Source of the DNA: Roseomonas marmotae
Lineage (GTDB): Bacteria; Pseudomonadota; Alphaproteobacteria; Acetobacterales; Acetobacteraceae
Assembly (NCBI RefSeq): GCF_017654485.1
Contig: NZ_CP061091.1
Span: 819,501 to 883,500 of the forward strand
Length of the DNA: 64,000 nucleotides
Reading direction: 5' to 3'
Position numbers and translations under genes: made by a program. This document shows, in pieces, positions 10,358-36,853 of this stretch. The first letter of the stretch is position 1; the number at the start of each line of letters is the position of its first letter. The notes beneath the pieces are model-generated. The model had not been told where the DNA came from. It was given only the letters and a program-made list of their open reading frames with translations, and made no database searches.

Positions 10358-10552
10358 CGGAATCGCTCCTGATACGGAATGGCAAGAACAGAAGAGCATG
10401 CATCATATCGACTTATCAACGAGTAGAATTGGCTTTGCGGCTGATTTTGTAAGGATTTTGTGGGAATTTCTGTATTGAGTGGAAGGTCCATGACAGATGG
10501 ACTGTCGGATCAGGACAGTATCGATCCTCAAAGCCGCCTTGAGACAGCTTGG

Positions 10553-14857: not shown

Positions 14858-14860
14858 CCG

Positions 14861-16567: not shown

Positions 16568-17109
16568 GATGGCGCACCTCCGGCCAGGATCCAGCTGACC
16601 CAGGCGGCAGCGGACAGCGCGGGCACGAAGGGGATTTCGGCGTCCTGAGCCAGACGCCGGTCCCGCAACCAGACCAGCAGCAGGGCCAGCGCGGCCGCGG
16701 CCGTGACCAGGGGGGCGAGCCCGCCCGGCCCCACCCAGGCCCCGGCCGCGCCCAGCATCCAGGCATCGCCGCGCCCGAGTCCGTCATGGCCGCGCAGCCG
16801 CCGGAAGACGCTTTCGATCAGCCGGAAGGCCAGGTAGCCCAGCGCCGCGCCGGCGGTGGCGGCCAGCAGCCGCTCCGGGCCCAGCAGGGCGGCGCTGGCG
16901 AGGCCCGCCAGCACGAGGGGCAGGACCAGCGCGGCATGGACCAGGCCGGAGCGCAGGTCGATCCAGCCGAGGGCCAGCAGCAGCGCGCCGAAGACGGCAG
17001 CGGCCGGCCAGGCGGCCGGCGGCAGCAGCGCCGCCAGGGGGGCGAGGAGCATCGCGCAGAGCAGGGGGATGGCCCGGCGCCCGGCATTCTGGCGGGAAAT
17101 GCTCAACAT
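16552..17109 (-). CDS. Short A24 prepilin peptidase-like protein
   Basis: 185-residue polytopic membrane protein, hydrophobic almost throughout. It carries the two aspartate regions expected of type IV prepilin peptidases: IDLRSGLV, and GLGRGDAWML in place of the usual GxGDxK. The N-terminal methyltransferase half of full-length GspO/PilD is absent, as in CpaA/TadV-type short enzymes. The basic residue after the second Asp is Trp here. The ATG at 17109 (MLSISRQ) is preferred; a longer upstream extension looks non-coding. Leading the minus-strand T2SS arm, it would process the pseudopilins encoded in the plus-strand arm. Confidence 0.78.
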   Translation of the reverse strand: MLSISRQNAGRRAIPLLCAMLLAPLAALLPPAAWPAAAVFGALLLALGWIDLRSGLVHAALVLPLVLAGLASAALLGPERLLAATAGAALGYLAFRLIESVFRRLRGHDGLGRGDAWMLGAAGAWVGPGGLAPLVTAAAALALLLVWLRDRRLAQDAEIPFVPALSAAAWVSWILAGGAPSWMPL

Positions 17110-17377
17110 GAAGCCATCACCCCTGCCTGGGTGGCGCCGCAGGAAAAGACAGGAACATGATGCCCGGCCATATGCATGGAGCAGTGCCTGACCATTGAAT
17201 CGCCCCGCAAGAGTGGGGGGCCGCCTCACCGAAGGCAAAGTAAATCGGAGCGGCCGGGGGAAGGCTTCCACGCGCCGCAAATCCTGGGCTGCGGCGAAAA
17301 AAGCTGAGATCATGGCTGTATTGTCCAGATAGTAAGCGACCGTCCGGCGGAGATCCGGGCGGCCGCCTCAGGCGCCG

Positions 17378-22678: not shown

Positions 22679-23093
22679 GACTCAGATCTCCCCCTCGACG
22701 GTAATGCGTGGATGGTTGCGGGTCCTGAAGTTCAGTTTTTCGTGATCAGCCTCTTGTGACGGAACCATGGTTCCGGCTCCTCCCGGGTCTAAACACATGA
22801 AAGAAACAACTGTGCTGCCTGGGCAGCGCGAATACTTACTAATAGAAACGCCGAATACATATCGGTCAATCAACAGTTTAACCTGATTTTACGGCTTGGA
22901 TTCCTGTAAGCCTTCGTGCAGGTTTACCAAACCAAAGAAAACGTTCAAACGTTTTTGAATACAAACGATCATGAAAAAAGATCAATGAATTCAACGGTGT
23001 GATTGAACGCGCCTGCGTTGTTTTCTGATCAGAAAGTAAAGTTATTATTCCGGGATATGGATTGGTTATTCACCAGTAGAGCCGGAGGGAAAG
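22679..23093. promoter_or_regulatory. AT-rich divergent promoter region between RTX and oxidase genes
   Basis: This 415-base non-coding region is far more AT-rich than the rest of the window and separates two divergent transcription units. It contains the inverted repeat described separately and a GGTTT-ACC-AAACC repeat (22921-22933). It ends with GGAGGGAAAG before the oxidase ATG. No convincing gene is seen. It is probably the shared control region for the RTX gene and the oxidase/T2SS operon. Confidence 0.65.
22938..22955. promoter_or_regulatory. Perfect inverted repeat, candidate operator
   Basis: AAAACGT-TCAA-ACGTTTT has perfect seven-base arms. It lies 139 bases upstream of the oxidase start in the AT-rich divergent region. 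It could be a binding site for a dimeric regulator acting on the oxidase operon, the RTX gene or both. No cognate regulator gene is adjacent. Confidence 0.45.
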
Positions 23094-26000
23094 ATGAGCG
23101 AGACGGTGTCAAATCCTGGTGGCTTGCGTCCCAAAGCAGGTGGACTAGGCGCGCTGCTCTCCCTGGGCATGCTGGCGAGTTTCGCCATGTCTGGACCTGT
23201 GGAAGCGCAGGGGTTGTCCTGTGCCCGCGAACTGACCGCCGATGTGGTCGCGCTGGATCAGGCGGTGCAGTTCAACCGCTATGGCTCGCATCATCCCGGC
23301 TACATGATCTATGCCCTGCGGGACGACGTGGTCGGCATGAATGGCGGTGCCGCGCTTTCCGCCGGTCAGGTCAGGCTAAGGGACGACAAGCGCCCGCGGC
23401 CGCTCGTGCTGCGGATGAATGCCGGCGACTGCCTGACGGTCAATTTCGAGAACCTGCTGAACAGCAGGCCCATTTCGGTTCCCGGAATCTCGGTTGACCA
23501 GCCGGCCACGCGTGCCGCAGGCCTGCATGTCGCCGGGCTGAATTATGTCGGCTCGATCGCGGATGACGGCGCCGCCGTCGGCGCCAATGCCGCCAGCACC
23601 GTCCCTTCCGGCGGCAAGACGACCTATCGGCTGCATGCCCCGCGTGAGGGTATCTTCGGCATGTACAATCCGGCCTCGCAGTCCGGGGGCGAGAGCAATA
23701 TCGGCTCCCTGGCCTTCGGCATGTTCGGTGCCGTCGCGGTGCAGCCGAAGGGCGCGGAATGGTATCGCAGCCAGGTCAGCCGGGCCGATCTGGACCTCGC
23801 GACGGAAGGCACCCTGCCCACCGGTCATCCCAGGATCAACTACGGCGCGGTCTATCCGTCGGGGCATCCGCGGGCGGGGCGGCCGATCCTGGCGATTCTG
23901 CAGGGCAACCGGATCATGCATGGCGATACCCGCGCCATCATCACCGGCCCTTATTTGAGCGCCCCTGTTAACGATCCCAATCGCGGCCGCTTCGCCGAGG
24001 GCAGCTTCGTGCCGAACCCGGTGCTGGAGCCGAACCGCAATACGGAGCAGGGGCCGGAGGCCGGTACGCGCGACCGGCGGGACCCCTATCGTGAATTCGT
24101 CCTCGCCTTCCATGACGAGGTGAAGTCGATCCAGGCCTTTCCTCAGTTCGAGGAAGCGGCGCTCGGCCACACATTGCACAGCGTGCGCGATGGCTTCGGC
24201 ATCAATTACGGCATCACGGGCGCGGGCTCGCAGATCCTGGCCAATCGCTTCGGCCTGGGCCCCACCGCGCAATGCGCGGAGTGCAAATACGAGGAATTCT
24301 TCCTGACCGCCTGGGCCGGCGGCGATCCGGCGCTGGTGGTGGATGTGCCCGCCAATGCGCAGCTTGGCTCCGACAACCAGAGCCGCGCGCCGGATGCGCC
24401 CATCTCGACCCGGGCACTCTACCCGGACGACCCCTCGAATACCTTTGGCAGCTACCTGGGTGACCGGGTGATGCTGCGTAACCTGTCTTTCGGCAAGGAA
24501 GCGCATATCTTCCACCTGCACGCGCATCAGTGGCTCTACAATCCGGAACAGGAAGGCTCTGCCTATCTGGACAGCCAGCTGATCGCGCCAGGTTCCGGCT
24601 ATACCTATGAGATCGCCTTCAATGGTTCGGGCAACCGCAACCAGACGGTGGGCGACAGCATCTTTCACTGTCACCTCTATCCGCATTTCGCGCAGGGGAT
24701 GTGGGGCCTGTGGCGGGTGCACGACGTCTTCGAGCAGGGCACGAAGCTCGACGCCTCCGGGCGGGTGGATCAGAACTTCAGCCAGGCCGAGGGCAACCGC
24801 GCGCTCCCGGATGGCGAGATCAAGGCCGGCACGGCCATTCCCGCCATCGTGCCGATGCCGACCATGGCCCTGGCGCCGCTGCCGGCGCCCGTGCATGTCG
24901 ATGCCGCGACCGGCAAGGTGGAGATGGCGGCCGGCAGCACGGCGGCAGATAATCCCGGCTTCCCCTTCTTCATCCCGGGTCAGGCCGGGCACCGTCCGCC
25001 GCGGCCGCCATTGGATACGATCTTCAACGGCGGCCTGCGCCGCCATGTCGTGACGGGGGGCGAGGGGGTGGCGCAGCTGACCCGCCATGACCTGGATAAG
25101 GTCAGCGATCAGCTGGAGATCCGCTGGCTGGCCGAGGATGGCGTGCCGTCCGAGTTGGCCGCCATGGCCTATCATTCGCTTCGCACCCATACGAGCGTGA
25201 CGCCGGAAGGCAAGACGCGCAGCTTCATCACGAATGGCCGGCCGCCAGTGCGCGGTGCGCCTTTCGCTGACCCCTGCGTGCTGGATGACGGCCAGGCCGT
25301 GCCGGGGGCCGATACGCCGCGCGTCTACAAGGGCGCCGCCTTCCAGATGCGCCTGAAGTTGAACCGCGCGGGCTGGCATTATCCGCAGGGACGCCTGCTT
25401 GCCCTCTGGAATGACGTGCAGGCCACGATCGGCGGCACGCGCGCGCCGGAGCCACTGGTGATGCGCGCGAACTCGGGTGAATGCATCGAGTATCACCATG
25501 CGAACCTGATCGAATCCGTCAGCTCGCTGGACGACTACCAGGTGCGGACGCCCACCGATATTGTCGGCCAGCATATTCACCTCGTGAAGTTCGACGTCAC
25601 CAGCGCCGACGGCTCCTCCAATGGCTGGAACTACGAGGACGGCACCATGGGGCCGACCGAGGTGCGGGAGCGCGTGCATGCCATCCGCAAGCGCTATGCC
25701 TGCGCCGAGGCGGCCGAAGGCGGCAACTGCCCGGTGGCGCGTGCGCATCCCTTTTTCGGGGAAGGGCCCAATGGCGCTTGGGTCGGCGCGCAGGCGACGG
25801 TCCAGCGCTGGTACGCCGACCCCGTCACCACGCAGTCCGGCAAGGACAATACCCTCCGCACCGTCTTCACCCATGACCATTTCGGGCCATCGACGCATCA
25901 GCAGAACGGCCTCTATGGGGCGCTGGTGATCGCGCCGAAGGGCACGACCTGGGCGCATCCCGAGACCGGCAGGGCCATCAACAACGCTGCCCGGGGCGAT

Positions 26001-28310
26001 GGCGGCCCCACCAGCTGGATGGCGAGTGTGATCACGCCCAATCCCGCGGAATCCTACCGGGAATTCGTGATGCAGGTCGCTGATTTCGCCAGCGCCTATC
26101 AGGCCGGCGGTGGCATGGATACGGGCGGGGCGATGATCCCGGACCCGTCGCGCGTCATCAACCCGCCGTATCGCAAGCGCATCGGCCTTCCGTACCTGCA
26201 GGAACTGCCGAATACCTGCCCCGGTGGCGGCGCGCCGCCCTGCCCGGAGGCTGTCTCGGCCGCGGATACCGGCACCTTCGTCGTGAACTACCGCAATGAA
26301 CCGCTGGCACTCCGCCTCTACGATCCGAACGCGCCGCGGGCGGATGGCAGCGGCAAGGGCGCGCAGGCCACTGGCAAAGCGGGCGACCCGGCTTATGCCT
26401 TCCGCTCCGACGTGACCCGCGCGATGCCGGAGTTCAACGCGCAGCCCACCGATCTTCCCGATCTCACCAAGGGCCTGCAGGCGGGCGATCCCTGGACACC
26501 GATGCTGCGGACCTACCGGCGTGACCGCGTGCAGGTCCGCATGATGGTCGGCGCGCATGAGGAGCCGCATCCCGTCCATATGAGCGGCATGCGCTGGCTG
26601 ATGAACAACACCGACCCGAACTCGGGCTGGCGGTCGTCGCATATGCAGGCGATCTCCGAGCATTTCGAGTTCGAGGTGCCGGTCGTGGCGCCGGAGGGCG
26701 ATATCGGCCCGCATACGGATCATCTCTACTCCGTCTCCGCCAGCGCCGAAGGCTATTGGCACGGCGTCTGGGGCCTGCTGCGCGCCTATGAATATGCGCG
26801 CAACGACCTGAAGGCCCTGCCCAACAACACCCCGCCCACCAATCCCCGCAATCAGCAGCTCAGCGACGGGCAGGTGGTGCAGCTGGGTGTGACGGGGAAT
26901 GTGAAGAACCTGCCGAACTTCAACGGCGTCTGCCCGGTGGGCGCGCCCATGCGGCGCTACGCCGTCTCGGCGGTCGCGGCCAGCCAGGCCATCGGCGCGC
27001 AGGGCATCGTCTACAACAAGGAAACCGGCAACTACGCTGCCCAGCGCGGCCCGATCACAGACCCAAGCGGCGCCATGTATGTGCTGGACAGCGACCTGAC
27101 CGCCGGCAAGCTGAAGGCCGGCGTGCCGGTGGAGCCGTTGATGCTGCGGGCCGCGGCCGGCGACTGCATCGAGGTCACACTGACCAACCGCCTGCCGGCC
27201 AACTGGGCCGACCAGGTGGTGGCCCCGGCCAACCAGGGCTTCTACATGCTGCCGATGGTGGTGCAGCGCTTCAATGCCAACCAGCTGAAGCCCTCGATGG
27301 AGGTCGGGCTCAACCCGCAGCTGCTCGCCACGGATGTCACGCGCAACGACGGGCTGAATGTCGGCCTCAATCGCGTGCCGCCGAATGCGGTGCGCCCGGT
27401 GAAGCAGACTGTGCCGCCCGGGCAGAGCACGACCTATCGCTGGTATGCCGGCCTGCTGACGCTCACCTCCGCCAATGACCTGGTGGCGACGCCGGTGGAA
27501 TTCGGTGCCCTCAACCTGATGCCGTCCGACAAGCTGCGGCACAGCAGCAAGGGGCTGATCGCCGGCATGGTGGTGCTGCCGCAGGGCGCGACCTGGGTCA
27601 CCGATACGGCGACCCGCATGGCGGCGACCGTGACCCTGCCGGGCGGCCGCCAGTTCCGCGACTTCACCCTGATGTTCCAGGACGACCTGAACCTGCGGGC
27701 CAGCGGCAAGCCGGTCTGCCCCGTGGGCGCCGGTGAGGCCGCGACGCCGGAGGAGGAAGGCGGGACCCCGCGCAGCATCACCGAGACCGGCTGCAAGGGC
27801 ATCCAGGATTCCATCGATGCCGGCAACATGGCGGTGAACTACCGGGCGGAGCCCTTCTGGTTCCGCCTTGGCCATCCCCCCGGCGAGAACCCGGAGATCA
27901 CCCGCCGCCTGAACTTCGCGAATGTGCTCTCCAACACCCAGGTGGGGCGTGACCCGCAGACGCCGGTCTTCACCACCAAGGCCGGCCAGGAGATCCGCTT
28001 CCGGCTGCTCCAGGCCGGCGGGCATGGACGCTCCGGCGTGTTCAACCTGCATGGGCATAACTGGTCGATCCTGCCTTACACCTCCGGCACCGTGCCGTCG
28101 CAGCGGATTGAGGGACGGCGCGCCGATGCCGCCTACCGGCCTTCGCCGGCGACCGGCACGCGCGACGCCATCGGCCCTGGCATGCACTACAACATCGTGG
28201 TCGAGCAGGCCGGCGGCCCTGCCAAGGTCGTCGGGGACTACCTCTTCCGCAACCAGATGCCGGACGCCTTCGACAGCGGGGTCTGGGGCATCCTGCGGGT
28301 GACGCCATGA
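23094..28310 (+). CDS. Giant multicopper oxidase, MofA/MnxG-like (putative Mn(II) oxidase)
   Basis: 1738 residues with an N-terminal signal peptide (hydrophobic segment, cleavage near PVEAQ). Several cupredoxin domains are evident. One complete copper set is visible: H471-IF-H474-L-H476 and H525-C526-H527-xxx-H531-xxxx-M536 (type 1 plus type 3 ligands), then H827-I-H829 and H927-D-H929 with H935 in THDHFGPSTHQQ. Degenerate copies lie near residues 1155-1223 (HEEPHPVH, then YWHGVWG) and 1644-1655 (HGRSGVFNLHGHNW). Size and motif layout match the giant oxidases MofA and MnxG/McoA, linked to Mn(II) oxidation in other bacteria. RBS GGAGGG. Its stop overlaps the next gene by four bases. Mn specificity is inferred; phenol or other metal oxidation is the alternative. 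Confidence 0.85.
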   Translation: MSETVSNPGGLRPKAGGLGALLSLGMLASFAMSGPVEAQGLSCARELTADVVALDQAVQFNRYGSHHPGYMIYALRDDVVGMNGGAALSAGQVRLRDDKRPRPLVLRMNAGDCLTVNFENLLNSRPISVPGISVDQPATRAAGLHVAGLNYVGSIADDGAAVGANAASTVPSGGKTTYRLHAPREGIFGMYNPASQSGGESNIGSLAFGMFGAVAVQPKGAEWYRSQVSRADLDLATEGTLPTGHPRINYGAVYPSGHPRAGRPILAILQGNRIMHGDTRAIITGPYLSAPVNDPNRGRFAEGSFVPNPVLEPNRNTEQGPEAGTRDRRDPYREFVLAFHDEVKSIQAFPQFEEAALGHTLHSVRDGFGINYGITGAGSQILANRFGLGPTAQCAECKYEEFFLTAWAGGDPALVVDVPANAQLGSDNQSRAPDAPISTRALYPDDPSNTFGSYLGDRVMLRNLSFGKEAHIFHLHAHQWLYNPEQEGSAYLDSQLIAPGSGYTYEIAFNGSGNRNQTVGDSIFHCHLYPHFAQGMWGLWRVHDVFEQGTKLDASGRVDQNFSQAEGNRALPDGEIKAGTAIPAIVPMPTMALAPLPAPVHVDAATGKVEMAAGSTAADNPGFPFFIPGQAGHRPPRPPLDTIFNGGLRRHVVTGGEGVAQLTRHDLDKVSDQLEIRWLAEDGVPSELAAMAYHSLRTHTSVTPEGKTRSFITNGRPPVRGAPFADPCVLDDGQAVPGADTPRVYKGAAFQMRLKLNRAGWHYPQGRLLALWNDVQATIGGTRAPEPLVMRANSGECIEYHHANLIESVSSLDDYQVRTPTDIVGQHIHLVKFDVTSADGSSNGWNYEDGTMGPTEVRERVHAIRKRYACAEAAEGGNCPVARAHPFFGEGPNGAWVGAQATVQRWYADPVTTQSGKDNTLRTVFTHDHFGPSTHQQNGLYGALVIAPKGTTWAHPETGRAINNAARGDGGPTSWMASVITPNPAESYREFVMQVADFASAYQAGGGMDTGGAMIPDPSRVINPPYRKRIGLPYLQELPNTCPGGGAPPCPEAVSAADTGTFVVNYRNEPLALRLYDPNAPRADGSGKGAQATGKAGDPAYAFRSDVTRAMPEFNAQPTDLPDLTKGLQAGDPWTPMLRTYRRDRVQVRMMVGAHEEPHPVHMSGMRWLMNNTDPNSGWRSSHMQAISEHFEFEVPVVAPEGDIGPHTDHLYSVSASAEGYWHGVWGLLRAYEYARNDLKALPNNTPPTNPRNQQLSDGQVVQLGVTGNVKNLPNFNGVCPVGAPMRRYAVSAVAASQAIGAQGIVYNKETGNYAAQRGPITDPSGAMYVLDSDLTAGKLKAGVPVEPLMLRAAAGDCIEVTLTNRLPANWADQVVAPANQGFYMLPMVVQRFNANQLKPSMEVGLNPQLLATDVTRNDGLNVGLNRVPPNAVRPVKQTVPPGQSTTYRWYAGLLTLTSANDLVATPVEFGALNLMPSDKLRHSSKGLIAGMVVLPQGATWVTDTATRMAATVTLPGGRQFRDFTLMFQDDLNLRASGKPVCPVGAGEAATPEEEGGTPRSITETGCKGIQDSIDAGNMAVNYRAEPFWFRLGHPPGENPEITRRLNFANVLSNTQVGRDPQTPVFTTKAGQEIRFRLLQAGGHGRSGVFNLHGHNWSILPYTSGTVPSQRIEGRRADAAYRPSPATGTRDAIGPGMHYNIVVEQAGGPAKVVGDYLFRNQMPDAFDSGVWGILRVTP

Positions 28311-30220
28311 CCGTGACGGGCATCGGGCGGGGGATGCCGGCAGCGATGCCGGTGCCTTCCCGCCGCCCGCCGCGCGGCCGGGCCGGGCTTCTCTCCGCCT
28401 CGCTGCTCGCCCTCGCGGCCAGTTGGCAGGGCGCGCGGGCGGAAGCACCGGCCTTCACCGGCCGGCATGCCGCCGCCGGCGTGGAAGCGCTGCTGGAAAT
28501 CCGGCCCCGGTCCGCCGGGGCGCTCCTCGCCGGCCAGACCGCCGGAATCCGGCTGCGCTTCAACGGGGAGGATGGCGCGCCGGTGCGCGGGCTGAAGCCC
28601 GCCGCCTGGGCCGAGCGCGGTGGCGGGCAGGCCATGTCCTGCCGGGACCGCGTCCGCAGCCTGTTGGAGAACCGCCTCGGCCGTAAGGCGGAGGTCGATC
28701 TCAATGCCTGGCATGTCGCCTATGTCGGGGACAATGGCGCGGTGCAGGTGCTGGACCCCGTGGGCGGCACTTCGCGCACCCGCCTGCTGGCCGCCCTCAA
28801 CCTCGCGGGCCATCCGGGCGGCTGGGCCGAGGATCCCGCCCGCCACGCGCTCTTCATCTCCGTCTCCGACAAGGGCGAGGTGGTGGAGATCGATACGGCG
28901 CGCTGGGCCGAGCGCCGCCGGCTGCAGGTCGGTGGCCGCCCCGCGCGGATCGTGCTCGATGCCGGTGGAAACCTCTGGGTCGGCCAGGATGGCACGGAGG
29001 GCGCGACCCAGGAGATCACCCTGGTCGGGCGCGCGACGGGCGAGGTCCAGGCGCGGCTGCCGGCCGGGCCGGGGCCGCATGCGCTGGCGCCGGTCGGCGC
29101 CGGCAAGGTCGTCGCCGCGACGTCACGGGGGGCGGTGGCCCTGACGGCGGATGAAGCGTGGCCGCTGCCCGCCCTGGGCGGCGGCTTCACGGATGTCGCG
29201 TATTCCGCGCTGGCCGATGTGGCGCTGCTGCTGGATGCCGCCGGAGGCCGCGTGCTCGCCCGGGCCGCGGATGGCCGGGTGGTCGGGCAATGGCCGGTGG
29301 CGCCGGGCGCCGCGGGGCTGTTCCCCGGTCCCGGCGGCAGGCTTCTCTTCGTGCCGGAGCCGGCGGAAGGCCGCGTCACCGTCATCGACCTCGGGCGCGG
29401 GGTGGTGGCGCATCGCGTCACCCTGGGCGGCGCGCCGCTGCGCGTCGGCTTCAGCGGCACCCAGGCCTATGTGCAGTCGGCCGCGGGTTCCACCGTCTCA
29501 CTGATCGCGCTGGGCAGCCTGGCCGAGGGCGCCACGCCGGCGGTGACGGGCATCGCCGTCGGCGAGGGCGGGCTGACCCCGGGCGAGGCGCTGGGCCCGA
29601 TGGTGGCCGCCGCGCCGGGTGACGAGGCCATGCTGATCGCCTCCCCGTCCGAGCGGATGGTGCATGTCTACATGGAGGGCATGGCCGCGCCCTCCGGCGT
29701 GCTGCGCGCGCCGCGAGGCCGGCCGCTGGCCATCACCGCCGTCGATAACGGCCTGCGCGAGACGGAGCCGGGCGTCTACCAGACCCAGGTCACCTTCCCG
29801 GGCGCGGGGCGCTATGTCTTCCCGGTCATGTTGCAGGGTGCCGGCTTCCTGCATTGCTTCGAGGTCGATGTCGGCGGCGACGGGCCGGTGCTGCTGAGCA
29901 GCCGCCTCAGCCTGGAATGGCCGGCCTCCGCGACGCGCAGCCTGCCCGCCGGCCAGCCCACCGCGCTGCGGGTGCAGCTGCACGGGCCGGAGGATGTCGG
30001 GGCCTGGCGCGCGGCGGGCGACCTCTCGGCCCGGCTCGTGCAGTTTGTCGGGCATTGGCAGGCGATGGTGCCGCTGAAGCCCCTCGGCAATGGCCTCTAT
30101 GAAACCGAGCAGGTTACGCCGCCCCGCGACGGCATCCTGCAACTCTATGTCGAATCCCGCTCGCTCGGGCTGGAGCCCGGCACGCTTCCCCACATCACGC
30201 TGAGGGCCGTCGCGCCATGA
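28307..30220 (+). CDS. Exported beta-propeller (YVTN/cytochrome-D1-like) protein of the oxidase operon
   Basis: 637 residues. An arginine-rich N-terminus precedes a signal peptide ending near ARAEA. Residues about 130-430 form repeated blades of the YncE/cytochrome-D1-like type (for example GNLWVGQDGT and GRVTVIDLGRGVVAH). Residues about 440-637 look like Ig/FixH-type beta domains, with AGRYVFPVMLQGAGFLHCFE. No heme c motif is present. It overlaps the oxidase stop (ATGA) and the following SCO gene (four bases), so translation is probably coupled. It may be a periplasmic partner or maturation factor; the exact role is unknown. Confidence 0.75.
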   Translation: MTVTGIGRGMPAAMPVPSRRPPRGRAGLLSASLLALAASWQGARAEAPAFTGRHAAAGVEALLEIRPRSAGALLAGQTAGIRLRFNGEDGAPVRGLKPAAWAERGGGQAMSCRDRVRSLLENRLGRKAEVDLNAWHVAYVGDNGAVQVLDPVGGTSRTRLLAALNLAGHPGGWAEDPARHALFISVSDKGEVVEIDTARWAERRRLQVGGRPARIVLDAGGNLWVGQDGTEGATQEITLVGRATGEVQARLPAGPGPHALAPVGAGKVVAATSRGAVALTADEAWPLPALGGGFTDVAYSALADVALLLDAAGGRVLARAADGRVVGQWPVAPGAAGLFPGPGGRLLFVPEPAEGRVTVIDLGRGVVAHRVTLGGAPLRVGFSGTQAYVQSAAGSTVSLIALGSLAEGATPAVTGIAVGEGGLTPGEALGPMVAAAPGDEAMLIASPSERMVHVYMEGMAAPSGVLRAPRGRPLAITAVDNGLRETEPGVYQTQVTFPGAGRYVFPVMLQGAGFLHCFEVDVGGDGPVLLSSRLSLEWPASATRSLPAGQPTALRVQLHGPEDVGAWRAAGDLSARLVQFVGHWQAMVPLKPLGNGLYETEQVTPPRDGILQLYVESRSLGLEPGTLPHITLRAVAP

Positions 30221-30840
30221 GCCGCATCCTCCCGCCGCCGGGCCGGCGCGGCCTTCTCGGGCTGGCCGCCGCCGCCGCTTTCATGCCGCGCCGGGGCATG
30301 GCGCATGATGGCCATGCTCATCCCCCCAGGGTGCCGCAGGCGGATGCCGTCACGCGCCTGAAGTCGCCGCTGCCGGATGTGCGGGTGACGGATGCGCAGC
30401 GCCGCCGCCGCCGCCTCGTCTCGGAGGTACTGGCGGGCCGGGTGGTCGCCATCGACTTCGTGCTCACGGACTGCACGACCTTCTGCGCCGTCATCTCCGC
30501 CGCCATGGCCGGGGCGCAGGAGCTGATGGGCCCGCGCCTGCGGGAGCAGGCCGGGCTGGTCAGCCTGGCGCTGGACCCGGTCGGCGGCACGCCGGAGCAG
30601 CTCCGCGACTATGCCGCCCGCTTCGGCGCCCGCCCGGACTGGAGCTTCCTCAGCATGCCGCAGGAGCCCCTGGAACAGGTTCTGCGGGGGCTGGGCGGGC
30701 CAGTGGCCGGCAGCGACCACGCGCCCATGGTCGTGGTGCTGGATTCCCGTGGCGGCGAGATCCGCCGCCTCTTCGGCATGCCCGCGCCGGAAGCCATCGT
30801 CAGCACCATGGAGGCCGCGCTGGCGGCCCGGAAAGCCTGA
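30217..30840 (+). CDS. SCO1/SenC-family copper chaperone (first copy)
   Basis: 207 residues with an N-terminal export signal (GLLGLAAAAAFMPRRGMA) followed by a His-rich stretch HDGHAH that may bind copper. The thioredoxin-like SCO fold has the copper CxxxC motif CTTFC and the distal His in SDHAPMVVVLD. SCO proteins deliver copper to or reduce metal-site cysteines in the periplasm. Four-base overlap with the propeller gene and a three-base gap to a second SCO gene. Its placement implies metallation of the giant oxidase rather than of cytochrome oxidase. Confidence 0.9.
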   Translation: MSRILPPPGRRGLLGLAAAAAFMPRRGMAHDGHAHPPRVPQADAVTRLKSPLPDVRVTDAQRRRRRLVSEVLAGRVVAIDFVLTDCTTFCAVISAAMAGAQELMGPRLREQAGLVSLALDPVGGTPEQLRDYAARFGARPDWSFLSMPQEPLEQVLRGLGGPVAGSDHAPMVVVLDSRGGEIRRLFGMPAPEAIVSTMEAALAARKA

Positions 30841-30843
30841 GCC

Positions 30844-31461
30844 ATGAACAGCATCCTTCCCGCGAGACGTGCCCTGCTGCTGGCCGCGCCGGCCCTGTTG
30901 CTCGGCCTGCGCGCGGCGCCCGCCGCCGCGCTGGATTGCGACGACCGGGAGCGGGAATACTTCAGCAACCGCGTGCTGACGGACCAGGAGGGCGCGAAGC
31001 GCCGCTTCTACGACGATGTGCTGCGTGGCCATTCCGTGCTGATCGGCTGGATCTTCACCAGTTGCCCGGATGCCTGCCCGCTGCTGGCGGCGCGCAGCCT
31101 GGCGATCGCGGAACAGGCGGCGCAGGCCGGCGGATCGCCGCGCATCGTGCATCTCACCACCGACCCGAACCGCGACCAGCCGGCGAAGCTGAAGAGCTGG
31201 GCGGCGAAGTTCGGGGATTACGCCGACTGGGTGCTGCTGACCGGCACGCCCGGCGATCTGCGGCATGTCGCGCAGCGGCTGGGCCAGACGGTGGATGAGG
31301 CGCGCCCGGACCGCCACACCACGCTGATGCTGGCCGGCAATGTCCCGGCGCGCCGCTGGGTCAAGCTGCGCCCGGACATGCAGGCGGAGGCGGCCGGGCT
31401 GCAGCTGGCGGATCTGGCGGCCGCGCCGGTGGTGTCGGATGCCCGGGCATGCACAGGCTGA
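30844..31461 (+). CDS. SCO1/SenC-family protein (second copy)
   Basis: 205 residues, with signal peptide ending near APAAALD. The copper motif is SCPDACP (CxxxC) and the distal His lies in DRHTTLML. It also has the family's LTTDPNRDQPAKLKSWA segment. It differs enough from the neighbouring SCO protein to be a functional specialisation rather than a recent duplication. Its stop lies inside the next gene (13-base overlap). Probable role: copper insertion or thiol reduction for the oxidase. Confidence 0.9.
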   Translation: MNSILPARRALLLAAPALLLGLRAAPAAALDCDDREREYFSNRVLTDQEGAKRRFYDDVLRGHSVLIGWIFTSCPDACPLLAARSLAIAEQAAQAGGSPRIVHLTTDPNRDQPAKLKSWAAKFGDYADWVLLTGTPGDLRHVAQRLGQTVDEARPDRHTTLMLAGNVPARRWVKLRPDMQAEAAGLQLADLAAAPVVSDARACTG

Positions 31462-32882
31462 CGGCTCTCCCGTTGCTTCTGCTGCCTCTCGCCGGGCCTG
31501 TGCAGGCCGGACCGGCGGAGGAAGGGGAGGCGCTGTTCACCGCCGGCGCGCGCCCCGGCGCCCCGGCCCCGCGGGCCACGGCATCCCGCGGCGCCACCAT
31601 GCCGGCCACGGCCCTGCCATGCTCCGGCTGCCATGGGGCGGATGGCGGCGGCGGGCGGATTGAGGCCGGGGTGACGCCGCCGCCCGTCCTCTGGTCCAGC
31701 CTCTCCCGGCCCGCGCCGGGGCGCCCGGCCTATGACGCGCCCTCGGTGCTGCGGGCCGTCTCGCAGGGGCTGGCGCCGGACGGGCGGGGCCTGGACCCCG
31801 TCATGCCCCGCTACGCGCTGACTATGCAGGACGGGCAGGCGCTGCTGGCTTATCTCCGCGCCCTGGATGCGCGCGGCGTGCCGGGGGTGGAGGAGGACCT
31901 CGTCAGCCTGGGCCTGCTGGTCCCCGCCGGGCCGCTGGGGCAGGGCTTCGCCGCCGCCTTCGGGCAGGCACTTTCCGCCGCCGCGCCGGAGGGTGTCTTC
32001 GGCCGCCGCATCACGCTGCGCCAGATGGAAGTGGCGGATTGGCGCGAGGCGCCCGCCGCCACGCGCCGGCTGCTGGATGACGGCGTGCTGGCCCTGGCCT
32101 CCGCCCTGCCGGGGGAGGCGAATGAGGGTGCGCTGGCCGTCGCGGCCGGGGCGCGGGTGCCCATCCTTTCGGCGCGGGCGGGGCTGGCCTCCTCGCCGCT
32201 CTCCTTCGCCCTGCTGCCCGGCGCGGTGGAGGAAGGCGTGGCGGCGCTGCGGCTGGCGCCCGAGCCCGGCCGCACGCTGATCCTCGTCTCCGGCGCGGCG
32301 GCGGAGCAGCGGCTGGCCGAGGCCATCGCCGGGCGTGTCGGCCAGACGGCCGAGGCCGATCCGCGCATCGTCACGCCCGCCGTGCTGCCGGGCGCCATGG
32401 CCGGCAGCACGGGCATCCTGCTCCTGCTGCCGCCGTCCCGCCTGGGCGAGATCGCGGCCACGCTGCGGCAGGGCCAGATCAGCCTCTTCGTGCCGGGGGC
32501 GGTGGGGGGCGCCGGCATCCAGGCCGCCGCCGCAGCGGCGGGCCAGCCCGTCGTGGTCGCGCTCGGCGTGCCGCTGGAGGCGGGGGAAGGCATGGCCGCG
32601 CGGCGCTTCGCTGCCAGCGGCGCCGCCCGCTTGGGCCTGCCGGGCCGCCTGGGCCATGCGGCGGGCGAGGTTTTCGTCGAGGCGATGCGCCGCAGCGGCC
32701 GCCGCCTGACGCGTGAACGGCTGGCCTCCGTGCTGGAGGGGCCGGAGGCTTTCGAAACGGGATCCCTGCCGCAGCAACGCCTGTCCGGGGCAGCGCGGGC
32801 CGATGCGGGCCGGATCGCCATCCTGCGGATGGATGGCGCCGGCACCGTCACGCGCGCGGCCGGGACAGCGACTGCCGAGTAG
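31449..32882 (+). CDS. Cytochrome c fused to a periplasmic ligand-binding domain
   Basis: 477 residues. The signal peptide ends near PVQAG. Residues about 25-140 form a class I cytochrome c domain with one heme motif CSGCH and a likely axial Met in DPVMPRYALTM. Residues about 145-460 resemble a Peripla_BP_6 (LIV-type) receptor, with EVADWREAPAATRRLLDDGV and an AGEVFVEAMRRSGR helix. It has no partner ABC genes nearby. The location between SCO genes and gspG suggests electron transfer from the oxidase or sensing of a ligand; both are inferred. Confidence 0.8.
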   Translation: MHRLTALPLLLLPLAGPVQAGPAEEGEALFTAGARPGAPAPRATASRGATMPATALPCSGCHGADGGGGRIEAGVTPPPVLWSSLSRPAPGRPAYDAPSVLRAVSQGLAPDGRGLDPVMPRYALTMQDGQALLAYLRALDARGVPGVEEDLVSLGLLVPAGPLGQGFAAAFGQALSAAAPEGVFGRRITLRQMEVADWREAPAATRRLLDDGVLALASALPGEANEGALAVAAGARVPILSARAGLASSPLSFALLPGAVEEGVAALRLAPEPGRTLILVSGAAAEQRLAEAIAGRVGQTAEADPRIVTPAVLPGAMAGSTGILLLLPPSRLGEIAATLRQGQISLFVPGAVGGAGIQAAAAAAGQPVVVALGVPLEAGEGMAARRFAASGAARLGLPGRLGHAAGEVFVEAMRRSGRRLTRERLASVLEGPEAFETGSLPQQRLSGAARADAGRIAILRMDGAGTVTRAAGTATAE

Positions 32883-32883
32883 G

Positions 32884-33336
32884 ATGGAGGACGCCGTGCG
32901 ACTTCAAAAAGGAGGCCGGACCCGGCGCGGCAGCCGGCCGGGGTTTACGCTGGTGGAACTGCTGGTGGTGCTGGTGATCCTGGGGCTGATCGCCTCCATC
33001 GCCGCGCCGCAGGCCATGCGCTATCTCGGCAGCGCCAAGCATGACGCGGCCAAGCTGCAACTGCAGGGGCTCATCACGGCCGTCGATCTCTTCCGCCTGG
33101 ATGTCGGCCGCTATCCCTCGCGCGACGAGGGGCTGGGCGCGCTGCTGCAGGCGCCGGGCGGGCTGGAGCGCTGGAACGGCCCTTACGTCCGCAAGGCGGA
33201 GCAGCTGGTCGATCCCTGGGGCCGCTCCTACCGCTACCGCGCGCCCGGCGAGCACAGCGCCTTCGATCTCTTCACCCTCGGCGCCGACGACCGTTCCGGC
33301 GGCGCGGGGGAGGATCGCGACGTGACGAGCTGGTAG
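32884..33336 (+). CDS. gspG: Type II secretion major pseudopilin GspG
   Basis: 150-residue prepilin. Leader cleavage is at RPG/FTLVE, followed by the hydrophobic helix LLVVLVILGLIASIAAPQA. The C-terminal GspG calcium region DPWGRSYRYRAPGEHSAFD and FTLGADDRSGG is intact. The start ATG is one base after the stop of the cytochrome fusion gene, linking it to the oxidase operon. A GTG at 32896 is an alternative start. Confidence 0.95.
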   Translation: MEDAVRLQKGGRTRRGSRPGFTLVELLVVLVILGLIASIAAPQAMRYLGSAKHDAAKLQLQGLITAVDLFRLDVGRYPSRDEGLGALLQAPGGLERWNGPYVRKAEQLVDPWGRSYRYRAPGEHSAFDLFTLGADDRSGGAGEDRDVTSW

Positions 33337-33340
33337 CGCC

Positions 33341-33775
33341 ATGCACCGCCCCGGCTTCACCCTGATGGAGGTGCTGGTGGTGCTGCTGATCCTCGGCCTC
33401 GCCGCCATGGCGGTGCCGCGCCTCTGGGGGGCGGGGCAGTCCGGGCTGCTGCGCGCCGCCGCCAATGACGCCGCCGCCATGCTGCGCGAGGCCCGGGCCG
33501 AGGCGCGGCGCACGGGGCGCGATACGCGGGTGGTCTTCGATACCGCGCTCGGCACCTATCGCGCCGCCCGGGGCGGCCGCACGGGGCGGTTGCCCTCCGG
33601 CGCCGTGCTGGCGGTGGAGGGCGTGGCGACCGAGGCCGATGAGGCGGGGCGGGTGGCCATCCGCTTCGATGGCGAGGGCGGTTCCACCGGCGGGCGGCTG
33701 CGCGTGGCACAGGGGCGCAGCGTCTATCTGGTGGAAGTGGACTGGATGACCGGCCATGTCCGCACGGCCCGGTAG
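33341..33775 (+). CDS. gspH: Type II secretion minor pseudopilin GspH
   Basis: 144 residues with prepilin signal RPG/FTLMEVLVVLLILGLAA, then a periplasmic domain with an N-terminal helix (NDAAAMLREARAEARRTG) typical of GspH. It lies four bases after gspG and overlaps gspI by 20 bases. Assignment to H rests on order (G-H-I-J) and size. Confidence 0.88.
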   Translation: MHRPGFTLMEVLVVLLILGLAAMAVPRLWGAGQSGLLRAAANDAAAMLREARAEARRTGRDTRVVFDTALGTYRAARGGRTGRLPSGAVLAVEGVATEADEAGRVAIRFDGEGGSTGGRLRVAQGRSVYLVEVDWMTGHVRTAR

Positions 33776-34130
33776 CGCCCAGGCCCCCGGCTTCACGCTG
33801 GTCGAGGCGCTGGTCGCGCTGGTCGTCGTCGCAGGCGCCGCCAGCGCGGTGACGCCCCTGCTCGGAACCATGTTGCGCGCCAAGGCAGAGCGGGAGGCGA
33901 ACCTCGCCGGCGTGCTGATGGCGCAGTCGCTGCTGGAAGCCTATGCGCCGCCCGGCGCGGCGCGGCCGGGGCGCTGGCAGGGCAACTCGCCCGCTGGCCC
34001 CTGGAGCATCGAGATCGGCCCCGGTGAGGCCGGCGCGCCGGGCGTGGCGCTGCGCCCCGTGCGCGTGGTGCTGCGCGCCGTGACGCTGGAGGCGCTGCGC
34101 CCCGGCCCGGCCGAGGAGCCGGCGCGATGA
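33756..34130 (+). CDS. gspI: Type II secretion minor pseudopilin GspI
   Basis: 124-residue prepilin with cleavage motif APG/FTLVEALVALVVVAGAAS. The short C-terminal domain is typical of GspI. It overlaps gspH (20 bases) and gspJ (four bases). It would form the pseudopilus tip with GspJ and GspK, the latter encoded in the opposite T2SS arm. Confidence 0.88.
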   Translation: MSARPGSAQAPGFTLVEALVALVVVAGAASAVTPLLGTMLRAKAEREANLAGVLMAQSLLEAYAPPGAARPGRWQGNSPAGPWSIEIGPGEAGAPGVALRPVRVVLRAVTLEALRPGPAEEPAR

Positions 34131-34729
34131 GCCGCCCCGGCATGACCCTGGTGGAGACGCTGCTGGCGCTGGTGGTGACGGGCCTCGTCATGACCATCGG
34201 CCTGTCCTCCCTGCATCTCGTCACCCGCGCGGGCACGGCGGCGGCGGGCGACCCGGCGGCGATGGTCACGGTCCAGGACCTGATACGACTGCGGCTGCTC
34301 GGCACCATGCCCGTGGTGATGGAAGGCCAGGCCGGCCGCCCCGCCGTCGTCTTCGAGGGGCAGGGGGAGCGGATGGTCTTCGTGGCGGAACTGCCGGCGC
34401 GCTTCGGCGTCCCGGGCCCCGCGCTGGTGGAACTGCGGCGGCAGGAGGAGGGGCTGCGGCTGCTCTGGCGCCCGCTCTTCGGGGCCGCGGGGGGCGAGGG
34501 CGGGGCGGGGCGCCTGCTGCTCGACCGCGTCGCCGCCCTGCGCCTGCGCTATTTCGGCGCGCCCCGCTCGGCCGATGTCGTAGGCTGGCGCGATAACTGG
34601 TCCGATGCGGCGGCGCTGCCCGCCGCCATCGAGATGACCGTGCTGTTCCATGAGGGCGATCCGCGCCGCTGGCCGCCTCTGGTGGTCGCGCCCCGGCTCG
34701 CCGCCTCCAGGGAAGGATCTGCGGAATGA
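34127..34729 (+). CDS. gspJ: Type II secretion minor pseudopilin GspJ
   Basis: 200 residues with prepilin signal RPG/MTLVETLLALVVTGLVM and a larger periplasmic domain ending in a beta-rich region (RLRYFGAPRSADVVGWRDNW) characteristic of GspJ. Four-base overlaps with both neighbours. Confidence 0.88.
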   Translation: MSRPGMTLVETLLALVVTGLVMTIGLSSLHLVTRAGTAAAGDPAAMVTVQDLIRLRLLGTMPVVMEGQAGRPAVVFEGQGERMVFVAELPARFGVPGPALVELRRQEEGLRLLWRPLFGAAGGEGGAGRLLLDRVAALRLRYFGAPRSADVVGWRDNWSDAAALPAAIEMTVLFHEGDPRRWPPLVVAPRLAASREGSAE

Positions 34730-35817
34730 CGGCCCTGCCAAGCCTGCCGGCCCTGGGCCTGCACGCCACCGGCTTTCTGCACTGGTGGCGGGAGGAGCTG
34801 CGCGGCCTGCTGCCCCGGCGCCTGCGCCGCCGCCCGCGCAGCGTCCTCCGCCTGGATGGGCAGACGGCGAGCATCGCGAAACCTTCCCGCTCCGGCCTTC
34901 AGGATATCGTAACCTTCGCGGTGCGGGACCTGGCGGGGCAGGGGCGGGCGCTGCGGGCGCTGGCGGCGCAGCGCGAGATCGTGCTGCTGGTCCCGTCTTC
35001 CTGGATCCTGCGCCGGGTGCTGCAACTGCCCGCCGCCGCCGAGCCGCGCCTGGCCGCGGTGCTGGGCTTCGAGCTGGAGCAGCATCTGCCCTTCCCGGCC
35101 GAGGAGATGGTCTGGAGCACGCGCCTGCTGCGCCGCCTGCCGGAGGCGCAGCGGATCGAGGTGGAAGTCGCGGTGCTGCCGCGCGCGGTGGTCGCGCCGC
35201 TGGCGGCGCAGCTCCGGCGGGTGGCGGGTACGGCGCATCTCGTCGCGCGGGCGGATCTGGACGCGGAATGGCCGGAAGTGCCGGTTGATCTCCTGGCACC
35301 CCCCCGAACCCGCTGGCGCCGGCGCATCGAACTGGGCCTCGCGCTGGCCGCGCTGCTGCTGGGCCTGCAACTCGGGCAGGCCGAGCTGCGGCGGCAGGAG
35401 GAGGCGGTGGCGGCGGTCGAGGCCCGGGCGGCGCGGGCGCGGGACGCCGCCGAGCGTGTCCTGGCACTGGAGAGCGAGACGGCGGGCCTGCGCGCGCGGC
35501 TGGCCGCGGCGACCGAGTTGCGCGGTGCCCGCCCGCCCGCCGTGGCCATCCTGGAGGAACTCGCCCAGCGGCTGCCGGACGATGTCTGGCTGACGGAGTT
35601 GCGCCTGTCGGAGGACCAGCTGCTGCTGTCGGGCTTCGCCGTCCGGTCCGACCGCCTTCTGGAAATGCTCGACGGCGCCGGAAACTTCCATCAGGCGCGC
35701 TTCACGGCGCCGGTGACGCGCGGGGCGCGCGACCCGGCGGACCGTTTCCAGATCGCGCTGCGCGTCGCCCCGGCCGGAAAGCCGCAGCAGGCCTCCGCGC
35801 ATGTGGCGCGGCCATGA
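34726..35817 (+). CDS. gspL: Type II secretion protein GspL (PilM/PilN-like)
   Basis: 363 residues. The cytoplasmic N-terminal half includes VPSSWILRRVLQLPAAAEPR and GFELEQHLPFPAEEM, which match the actin-like GspL/PilM pattern that binds GspE. A single membrane segment lies near residues 203-222 (IELGLALAALLLGLQLG). The periplasmic PilN-like part has a coiled-coil (about 225-265) and the LPDDVWLTELRL strand. It joins the cytoplasmic ATPase to the periplasmic platform. Confidence 0.88.
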   Translation: MTALPSLPALGLHATGFLHWWREELRGLLPRRLRRRPRSVLRLDGQTASIAKPSRSGLQDIVTFAVRDLAGQGRALRALAAQREIVLLVPSSWILRRVLQLPAAAEPRLAAVLGFELEQHLPFPAEEMVWSTRLLRRLPEAQRIEVEVAVLPRAVVAPLAAQLRRVAGTAHLVARADLDAEWPEVPVDLLAPPRTRWRRRIELGLALAALLLGLQLGQAELRRQEEAVAAVEARAARARDAAERVLALESETAGLRARLAAATELRGARPPAVAILEELAQRLPDDVWLTELRLSEDQLLLSGFAVRSDRLLEMLDGAGNFHQARFTAPVTRGARDPADRFQIALRVAPAGKPQQASAHVARP

Positions 35818-36371
35818 ACACGCTCTCGCGGCCAGTGCGGCGCCTGCTGGCACTCGTGCTCCTGGCCCTGCCGCCTGCCCTGCTCTGGATGTTCCTGGCC
35901 GAGCCCTGGATGGATGAGCATGCCCGGCTTTCCGAGCGCATGGAGCGCGCCCTGGCCGTGGAGATGCGCGCGCTGTCCCTCGCGGGGCGCGAGCTGGAGT
36001 TCCGGCAGGAGGGGGGGGCGCTGCGGCAGGCGCTCTCGGGCGTGGCCGACCTGCCGGCCTCGGGCAGCTATGCCCTGGCCGGCGCGGAATTGCAGCGCCG
36101 GCTGCGGGAGGCCGCCGGGCGCGCGCGCGGCAGCCTCAGCAGCATCGAGACCATGCCGGAGGGCCGGGCCGGCGATGGCATGGTCGGCGTCCGCGCCCGG
36201 CTGCAGACGGATGCCGAGGGTTTGCAGCGGCTGCTGGCGGAACTGGAGACCGGCAAGGCGCTGCTGCAGGTGCATTCCCTGTCACTGGCATCGGTGGGCA
36301 TCAGCCGAAGCCGGCTGCTGGATGTGCAGCTCGACCTGCGCGGCCCCCGGCGGGAGGAGGCCGCGCGATGA
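35814..36371 (+). CDS. gspM: Type II secretion protein GspM
   Basis: 185 residues: a short cytoplasmic N-terminus, one membrane helix (LLALVLLALPPALLWMFL), a coiled-coil stretch and a ferredoxin-like periplasmic domain. Position after gspL and the coupled four-base overlaps support GspM, the GspL partner in the inner-membrane platform. Confidence 0.82.
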   Translation: MNTLSRPVRRLLALVLLALPPALLWMFLAEPWMDEHARLSERMERALAVEMRALSLAGRELEFRQEGGALRQALSGVADLPASGSYALAGAELQRRLREAAGRARGSLSSIETMPEGRAGDGMVGVRARLQTDAEGLQRLLAELETGKALLQVHSLSLASVGISRSRLLDVQLDLRGPRREEAAR

Positions 36372-36853
36372 TGATCCGCCTGCCGCTGCTGCTGGCCGCC
36401 TGCGCCGTGCTGGCCTATGCCTCGCTGCGGGAGGCGGAGGTGATGGTACCGGGCCCGCTGACGCGCGACGCGCAGACCGGGCCGAAGCCGGCCGCCGCCA
36501 TCCAGCCGCCGCCCGCGCCGCCTTCCGGGCCCTGGGTGGAACAGACGGGGCGCCCGCTCTTCGCCGTCACGCGCCGCCCGCCGGAGGAGGAGGTGACGGA
36601 AACCGCCGCCGCCGCCGCGCCGGAGCCGCTGCCGCCGGTGGCGGCCTCCGGCGTGGTGCTGCGGAACGGCCATGCCCTGGCGCTGCTGCGCTTGGCGAAT
36701 GGCCAGTCCGTGCGCGCCGCCACCGGCGACGAGGTGGATGGATGGCGAGTCGGGCGGATCAGCGCGGAGGGCGTGGAAATGACGCTGGGCGACCGCAGCG
36801 TCATGCTGGCCGCGCGGGTACCCATGGCGGATGGCCTGCTGCGTTCGGAGTGA
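36368..36853 (+). CDS. Type II secretion GspC/GspN-like protein
   Basis: 161 residues: an N-terminal membrane helix, a Pro/Ala-rich linker (about 40-60), then RPLFAVTRRP followed by a small beta domain (GVVLRNGHALALLRLANGQ, and a GWRVGRIS turn) resembling the GspC homology region. It lacks the PDZ domain of full-length GspC. It could connect the platform to GspD. Whether it should be called C or N cannot be decided by eye. Last gene of the long plus-strand unit; it ends 16 bases before a convergent gene. Confidence 0.72.
   Translation: MMIRLPLLLAACAVLAYASLREAEVMVPGPLTRDAQTGPKPAAAIQPPPAPPSGPWVEQTGRPLFAVTRRPPEEEVTETAAAAAPEPLPPVAASGVVLRNGHALALLRLANGQSVRAATGDEVDGWRVGRISAEGVEMTLGDRSVMLAARVPMADGLLRSE

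What the first reader, a model, noticed from the sequence alone, without database searches (positions are those of the whole stretch)
23094..36853. Giant MnxG/MofA-like oxidase and T2SS pseudopilin genes form one continuous transcription unit
Twelve plus-strand genes run with gaps of at most five bases or with overlaps: oxidase, propeller protein, SCO, SCO, cytochrome c fusion, then gspG-H-I-J-L-M-C/N. A T2SS is normally a general-purpose exporter in its own operon. Coupling it to one enormous cargo candidate and its copper chaperones suggests a dedicated 'make, metallate, export' module. Known work ties T2SS to Mn oxidase export in Pseudomonas; this operon fusion would make that link genetic. 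Mn as substrate is inferred.
Basis: partly seen in the sequence, partly recalled or inferred. Interest (0 to 1): 0.9.

Follow-up and report, generated by a model that had tools for sequence, protein, structure and literature searches.

The report
Metal oxidase operon with built-in exporter
An alphaproteobacterium carries one long run of genes for a giant copper enzyme of the manganese-oxidase family, two likely copper-loading helpers and much of the machine that probably ships it out of the cell; enzyme and exporter were already linked in other bacteria, but here they sit in one apparent transcription unit, which makes the link easy to test.

Summary
Twelve plus-strand genes at 23094-36853 are contiguous (gaps at most 4 nt, the rest overlaps): MnxG-family oxidase, beta-propeller, SCO, SCO, cytochrome c/binding-protein fusion, gspG-H-I-J-L-M-C. 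The same order, with a 4-13 nt gene-5/gspG junction, occurs in five other Roseomonas-group species; a seventh genome is broken by contig ends. Of 17 genomes of the genus only the two with the oxidase have T2SSG. The first five genes match the published Pseudomonas putida mnxG operon in order. T2SS genes also lie near 34 of 35 Pseudomonas-type loci (a Hyphomonas among them) but only 2 of 39 other loci of the family, both doubtful. So the link was already genetic elsewhere; the operon fusion is a new variant. Best reading: the oxidase is exported by Sec, copper-loaded in the periplasm and carried across the outer membrane by this T2SS. Export, exclusivity and Mn as substrate are inferred. The oxidase scores below the MnxG equivalog cut-off, and whether the link arose once or twice is undecided.

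The parts
23094..28310 (+). MnxG-family multicopper oxidase, 1738 aa, with a signal-peptide-like N-terminus (read by eye)
   Evidence: Pfam Cu-oxidase; NCBIfam MnxG 1440 bits, cut-off 3100; PDB 9bxa MnxG E 3.1e-88; copper motifs at 474, 525, 825 and 925
28307..30220 (+). beta-propeller protein, exported by appearance
   Evidence: weak propeller hit; distant homologue has YNCE propeller; same place as the YVTN propeller gene of the P. putida mnxG operon
30217..30840 (+). SCO1/SenC copper chaperone a, CxxxC and a later His present (by eye)
   Evidence: Pfam SCO1-SenC 2.5e-8; sequence
30844..31461 (+). SCO1/SenC copper chaperone b, CxxxC and a later His present (by eye)
   Evidence: Pfam SCO1-SenC 3.5e-15; sequence
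31449..32882 (+). MofC-like protein: one CxxCH cytochrome c domain, then a region matching binding-protein domains of homologues
   Evidence: Pfam Cytochrom_C; distant homologue has Cytochrom_C and Peripla_BP_6; passage on MofC-like proteins in PMC5566968
32884..33336 (+). gspG, major pseudopilin
   Evidence: T2SSG 1e-34 and N_methyl
33341..33775 (+). gspH
   Evidence: GspH 1.1e-8
33756..34130 (+). gspI (weak)
   Evidence: N_methyl borderline; XpsI 1.6e-5
34127..34729 (+). gspJ
   Evidence: T2SSJ 7.1e-8
34726..35817 (+). gspL
   Evidence: PilN 3.7e-13; T2SSL 9.6e-4, below cut-off
35814..36371 (+). gspM
   Evidence: T2SSM_b 9e-14
36368..36853 (+). short gspC/PilP-like gene, end of the run; a convergent lytic transglycosylase gene ends 17 nt on
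   Evidence: PilP 3.5e-6, below cut-off; no Pfam hit; SLT gene 36870-37748
16552..17313 (-). gspO, prepilin peptidase (true start may be internal)
   Evidence: Peptidase_A24 4.2e-14
14861..16567 (-). gspE ATPase
   Evidence: T2SSE 7.7e-129
13625..14857 (-). gspF
   Evidence: T2SSF 2.2e-43
11370..13628 (-). gspD secretin
   Evidence: Secretin 3.3e-44, GspD N0 domain; the genome's only PF00263 match
10553..11392 (-). gspK
   Evidence: pseudopilin-like N-terminus read by eye, no Pfam hit; tblastn partners beside gspD in five of five related loci
22679..23093 (.). divergent intergenic region, presumed control region of both halves
   Evidence: long gap; no promoter-like site, no sigma-54-like site, no clear conserved motif in an alignment of six loci

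Best explanation
This is the Roseomonas-group form of the mnxG-type oxidase locus, in which the oxidase operon is fused to the pseudopilin and assembly-platform half of a complete T2SS; the ATPase, inner-membrane protein, secretin, GspK and prepilin peptidase are encoded divergently next door. The oxidase is translocated unfolded by Sec, folds in the periplasm, receives copper with help of the two SCO proteins, and is carried folded across the outer membrane by this T2SS to the cell surface or beyond, where it oxidises a reduced metal, most likely Mn(II), with O2. The propeller and the cytochrome c/binding-protein fusion are accessory. Shown here: gene content, order, conservation, co-occurrence, absence of a second T2SSG in this genome, copper-ligand motifs. 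Inferred: co-transcription, T2SS export, SCO metallation, substrate.
For: Gapless 12-gene order in the window and near-gapless in five other species, with the gene-5/gspG junction at 1, 11, 13, 10, 4 and 4 nt. Complete divergent gspO-E-F-D-K half (relatives). Only one T2SSG and one secretin in the genome. Genus: oxidase in 2 of 17 genomes, T2SSG in the same 2. Family sample: 7 of 397 genomes (window included) hold a close oxidase; 6 of the 7 have T2SSG about 4.7 kb downstream as the only T2SSG; the seventh has its oxidase at a contig end and no T2SSG found, but gspO beside it and gspD and gspK at the end of another contig. First five genes match the P. putida mnxG operon. T2SS genes near 34 of 35 Pseudomonas-type loci against 2 of 39 other loci. 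Hyphomonas has two T2SSs, one beside the oxidase. T2SS dependence stated for OmpB of Geobacter (passages) and, in cited titles, for the P. putida Mn-oxidising factor. Two archaeal and four Chloroflexi genomes with the oxidase have no T2SSG (6 of 6).
Against: NCBIfam MnxG equivalog cut-off not reached (1440 of 3100 bits). 37 of 39 family loci outside the two linked groups show no T2SS gene in the flanks held, and 33 of the 39 have the propeller gene all the same, so the oxidase module can work without a linked T2SS. Lack of T2SSG is not confined to archaea and Chloroflexi: 13 of 46 genomes with the oxidase lack it, among them five Acidobacteria-type MAGs, a Deltaproteobacteria MAG and P. ruber. 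T2SSG is common in the family (129 of 397), so the co-occurrence in the genus may reflect one acquisition of an island. AU tests do not reject one clade of linked oxidases (p 0.394) or of linked GspE (p 0.398), so repeated recruitment is not shown. No promoter or transcript evidence.
Confidence: 0.62

Rival explanations
1. The T2SS is the bacterium's general exporter; the oxidase is one cargo of several and the clustering only gives shared regulation.
For: It is the only T2SS found in the genome; T2SSG is widespread in the family without this oxidase (123 of 390 genomes lacking a close oxidase).
Against: 15 of 15 oxidase-less congeners lack T2SSG (one of them only 71% complete), so the genus does not need a general T2SS; Hyphomonas keeps a second, unlinked T2SS.
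Confidence: 0.22
2. Same export route, but the physiological substrate is not Mn(II): Fe(II), Cu(I), another reduced compound, or electron transfer to or from minerals as proposed for OmpB. Not exclusive of the first part of the best explanation.
For: The protein lies outside the MnxG equivalog and away from the Pseudomonas MnxG clade in the tree; OmpB of Geobacter is tied to metal-oxide reduction; the MofC-like cytochrome suggests electron transfer.
Against: Operon layout equals that of the Mn-oxidising P. putida mnxG operon; best solved relative is Bacillus MnxG.
Confidence: 0.35
3. Passive linkage: a mobile or inherited island that happens to hold both systems, with no functional tie.
For: Patchy distribution: a close oxidase in 7 of 397 family genomes.
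Against: Tight junction kept across six species while their oxidases have drifted to 61-77% identity with the window's (best segment); linkage also in Pseudomonas-type loci in other arrangements.
Confidence: 0.07
4. The main T2SS cargo is the 1766-aa RTX protein between the two halves.
For: RTX genes lie between gspO and the oxidase in the window and in three related loci.
Against: None at that place in R. pecuniae and Siccirubricoccus; no signal peptide by eye; 16 RTX repeat stretches, typical of type I secretion substrates (established knowledge).
Confidence: 0.05

Closest known systems
mnxG operon of Pseudomonas putida GB-1
   Same: mnxG, YVTN propeller, SCO1, SCO1, binding protein plus cytochrome c, in this order (Table 4 of PMC11409713); in the Pseudomonas loci fetched, T2SS genes flank it
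   Different: P. putida GB-1 ends with a SurA gene where the window goes on with gspG-H-I-J-L-M-C; in Pseudomonas loci gspG-gspF are divergent and gspE is separate downstream; oxidase about 40% identical in the best segment
mof operon of Leptothrix and ompB cluster of Geobacter sulfurreducens
   Same: giant multicopper oxidase with a MofC homologue (cytochrome c plus binding domain) and in some a SCO chaperone (PMC5566968 passages); OmpB needs a T2SS (passages)
   Different: no MofB peptidyl-prolyl isomerase among the window's operon genes; T2SS genes in the same run here, none found near the Geobacter and Pelobacter loci fetched
Xcm Gsp-related pathway of P. putida GB-1 (de Vrind 2003; title seen in reference lists; content recalled, paper not held)
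   Same: T2SS-like genes needed to export the Mn-oxidising factor; a gspG-gspF type pair (recalled as xcmT1-xcmS)
   Different: scattered partial clusters there (recalled), complete T2SS at one locus here
Bacillus MnxG (PDB 9bxa)
   Same: sequence E 3.1e-88; best structural match of the 1200-residue model
   Different: shorter (1227-residue chain against 1738); a Gram-positive enzyme needing no outer-membrane export (recalled)

Membership tests
MnxG-type giant multicopper oxidase | copper-ligand motifs HxHxHQW, HCHxxxHxxxxM, GQHIH, FxHDH with the type 1 block first | tested here: met
   positions 474, 525, 825, 925; order fits bacterial six-domain enzymes as described in PMC3600357 passages
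MnxG-type giant multicopper oxidase | six-domain fold | tested here: inconclusive
   residues 41-1240 folded, pLDDT 68.4, pTM 0.72, with low confidence around the type 1 copper block; top hit 9bxa, E 5.1e-41, TM 0.49, then factor V and ceruloplasmin; C-terminal 498 residues not folded
NCBIfam NF041487 MnxG equivalog | score of at least 3100 bits | tested here: not met
   1440 bits; Pseudomonas L089 3893 and Aromatoleum L108 3260 pass, Hyphomonas L112 2256, R. pecuniae L050 1456, Geobacter L069 1420 do not
MnxG-type giant multicopper oxidase | Mn(II) oxidation | not testable with these tools
   no assay
mnxG operon of Pseudomonas | order oxidase-propeller-SCO-SCO-cytochrome c/binding protein | tested here: met
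mnxG operon of Pseudomonas | SurA gene as sixth gene | tested here: not met
   sixth gene is gspG
mnxG operon of Pseudomonas | sigma-54/MnxR control | tested here: inconclusive
   no sigma-54-like site upstream of the oxidase, up to 2 mismatches; MnxR not searched
mof operon of Leptothrix | mofB peptidyl-prolyl isomerase | tested here: not met
   no such domain in the 12 genes
Type II secretion system | core genes D, E, F, G and O | tested here: met
Type II secretion system | H, J, L and M | tested here: met
   Pfam above cut-off, L through PilN
Type II secretion system | I, K and C | tested here: inconclusive
   I borderline, C weak; K by eye and synteny only
Type II secretion system | exports the oxidase | not testable with these tools
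   needs mutants

The most novel reading that the evidence does not exclude
A one-cargo T2SS: a complete secretion machine that is co-transcribed with, gained and lost with, and devoted to one giant metal oxidase, with the pairing fixed independently in the Roseomonas group and in the Pseudomonas/Hyphomonas MnxG lineage.
Probability: 0.25. Interest if true: 0.72.

Novelty: new variant of a known kind. Interest (0 to 1): 0.52.

Why it matters
How T2SSs choose cargo is a long-standing question. Here a complete T2SS, the only one found in its genome, sits with one obvious cargo candidate and its likely copper chaperones, in a genus where the other genomes searched, but for one that shares the whole locus, lack T2SSG. 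That gives a clean genetic system for T2SS specificity and for the order of folding, copper loading and export. It also extends the oxidase/T2SS tie from Pseudomonas and Geobacter to alphaproteobacteria and predicts extracellular metal oxidation in the Roseomonas group.

Tried and rejected
RTX protein as main cargo: its presence at the locus is not conserved. Passive linkage: junction conserved over six species. G613 as evidence that oxidase and T2SS decay together: G613 has a heme-less MofC-like gene next to gspG without oxidase in the 20 kb seen, but has T2SS genes on another contig, so the idea was dropped. Two independent origins as a firm claim: the 61-row oxidase tree puts the two linked groups apart; starred branches force five label changes, three of them due to L051 (contig end, counted as unlinked), L078 (doubtful, counted as linked) and L085. 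A thinned 38-row set without these forces two, but AU p is 0.394; GspE p is 0.398; the GspG tree is too weak. Promoter search: no sigma-70-like, sigma-54-like or clear conserved motif. Iodide oxidase IoxA as a relative: considered from passages of PMC4082002, not tested by sequence. Secretin counts as a T2SS proxy: 5 of 15 oxidase-less congeners have a secretin match without T2SSG, probably other machines, so T2SSG was used.

Rows dropped and limits: the oxidase tree used 61 of 86 extracted oxidase rows (short, duplicate and most Pseudomonas rows left out); one search used 38. The grouping behind 6 of 6, 34 of 35 and 2 of 39 was made after seeing and the tree; of the 35, 14 stand in the tree and 21 Pseudomonas loci were assigned by organism name. 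The Fisher p of 4e-19 is therefore post hoc, and rows are related; relatedness also weakens the family p of 0.0056. The T2SSG search by handles took 50 of the 80 loci, 46 genomes.
Full report
What was checked. The window lies in G000:C1:819501-883500, a 4.8 Mb genome. Its closest named relatives by oxidase sequence are Roseomonas-group Acetobacteraceae/Roseomonadaceae. A convergent lytic transglycosylase gene lies 17 nt after the last one. Inside 23094-36853 the scan found no plus-strand terminator-like site and no promoter-like site, but its models are crude.

The missed half. On the minus strand, behind a 1766-aa RTX protein gene, lie gspO, gspE, gspF and gspD and a gspK recognised by its pseudopilin-like start and by synteny. 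The T2SS is therefore complete at one locus, split over two divergent runs. It is the only one found in the genome: one T2SSG match and one secretin match.

What the oxidase is. It carries two multicopper-oxidase Pfam hits, hits NCBIfam MnxG at 1440 bits, below the equivalog cut-off of 3100, and its best solved relative is Bacillus MnxG 9bxa (E 3.1e-88). The four copper motifs are present in the order type 1 block, then the two HxH blocks, which fits bacterial six-domain enzymes as described in PMC3600357 (passages). A model of residues 41-1240 (pLDDT 68.4, pTM 0.72) matches 9bxa best (TM 0.49), then factor V and ceruloplasmin. In calibration, a Pseudomonas and an Aromatoleum protein pass the MnxG cut-off, while Hyphomonas, R. 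pecuniae and Geobacter proteins do not.

What the operon resembles. P. putida GB-1 has mnxG, YVTN propeller, SCO1, SCO1, binding protein with cytochrome c domain, SurA (PMC11409713, section 8 read in full). The window has the same first five, then gspG onward. PMC5566968 (passages) describes MofC-like proteins with cytochrome c and periplasmic binding domains, and SCO chaperones in some mofA/ompB clusters, which fits gene five; its distant homologue in L046 has both Pfam domains.

Conservation of the fusion. In Pararoseomonas baculiformis, Roseomonas sp. KE0001, R. populi, R. pecuniae and Siccirubricoccus sp. G192 the same twelve genes follow each other, with the gene-5/gspG junction at 11, 13, 10, 4 and 4 nt (window 1 nt). 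Siccirubricoccus is looser elsewhere: an estimated 183 nt before its fifth gene and 30 nt before gspC. The divergent gspO-E-F-D-K half is present in all five. Paracraurococcus ruber is cut by contig ends: gspO beside the oxidase, gspD and gspK on another contig, no T2SSG found. RTX genes stand between gspO and the oxidase in three of the five.

Co-occurrence. Of 17 genomes of the genus (window included) two have the oxidase and the same two have T2SSG; 15 have neither, one of them 71% complete. If independent, chance is 1 in 136, but the genomes are related. Of 397 family genomes 17 have some match to the oxidase and 7 a close one; 129 have T2SSG. Six of the 7 have T2SSG about 4.7 kb downstream as the genome's only T2SSG; the seventh is P. 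ruber. Longer, more distant oxidases in G600, G458 and G695 are on other contigs than T2SSG, so linkage seems to belong to this oxidase type, though draft contigs leave room for doubt. In a phylum sample 4 of 398 genomes matched; G157 has oxidase, propeller, SCO and MofC-like genes with no T2SS hit in the 38 kb fetched.

Wider family. The genome scan confirmed 558 relatives and kept the best 80 loci. T2SS hits (E up to 1e-10, window queries) lie in 6 of 6 Roseomonas-group loci, 34 of 35 Pseudomonas-type loci (Aromatoleum, Hyphomonas and a gammaproteobacterial MAG included) and 2 of 39 others; those two are a 24% GspD hit in L058 and E/F-type hits in L078 that I read as pilus genes. In the Pseudomonas loci with enough flank, gspG-gspF are as a rule divergent upstream of mnxG and gspE lies downstream; L121 shows gspE only. 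In Hyphomonas BRH_c22 gspG, K, D, C, L, E, F and H lie within about 11 kb upstream of the oxidase, and a second T2SS lies on another contig. The propeller gene accompanies 33 of the 39 other loci. Of 46 genomes searched, 33 have T2SSG; two Methanoperedens and four Chloroflexi genomes have none, as expected of cells without a T2SS-type outer membrane (established knowledge for the archaea; assumed for Chloroflexi), but seven others lack it too: P. ruber, five Acidobacteria-type MAGs and a Deltaproteobacteria MAG. Queries from the window may miss divergent T2SS genes.

One origin or two. The oxidase tree separates the two linked groups, but the AU test does not reject joining them (p 0.394), nor for GspE (p 0.398). 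Undecided.

Mechanism. A Sec signal-like start (by eye), SCO chaperones and a T2SS, which by established knowledge moves folded proteins from the periplasm, fit a make-metallate-export route. Secondary passages state that OmpB of Geobacter needs a T2SS (PMC3543383; PMC10599522); the primary papers on Geobacter and P. putida are not held, and my account of the Xcm genes is recalled. Substrate and exclusivity are not shown.

Literature. Searches (two returned no paper) listed no title or abstract start describing T2SS genes in one run with an mnxG-type oxidase. This covers only the open papers held; I saw passages of 15 papers and one section in full. In three mnxG papers the word secretion has no occurrence in the main text. 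The Pseudomonas flanking genes may well be described in subscription papers.

Verdict. A real, conserved, well-defined locus; a new variant of the mnxG/T2SS theme rather than a new kind of system.

Noticed in passing
17378-22678 (-): 1766-aa RTX repeat protein between the two T2SS halves, no signal peptide by eye; RTX genes at this place in three of five related loci.
   Followed up: partly
9743-10399 (-): PEP-CTERM protein gene just beyond gspK (Pfam PEP-CTERM).
   Followed up: no
L185 10494-12224 (-): In G613 a MofC-like gene without heme motif stands next to gspG, with no oxidase in the 20 kb seen; other T2SS genes are on another contig.
   Followed up: partly
G691:C26:22824-26849: R. pecuniae also encodes a second, longer oxidase of the family (open frame 2251 aa), on another contig than its T2SSG.
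   Followed up: no
L085 and L091: One gammaproteobacterial MAG has two or more oxidases of the family, in L085 apparently in tandem (match 10001-22019).
   Followed up: no
L046 10400-10981 (+): 193-aa gene of no Pfam family between oxidase and propeller in a distant relative.
   Followed up: no
22939-22954: Short AACGTT-type repeat in the divergent intergenic region, seen by eye; possible operator.
   Followed up: no
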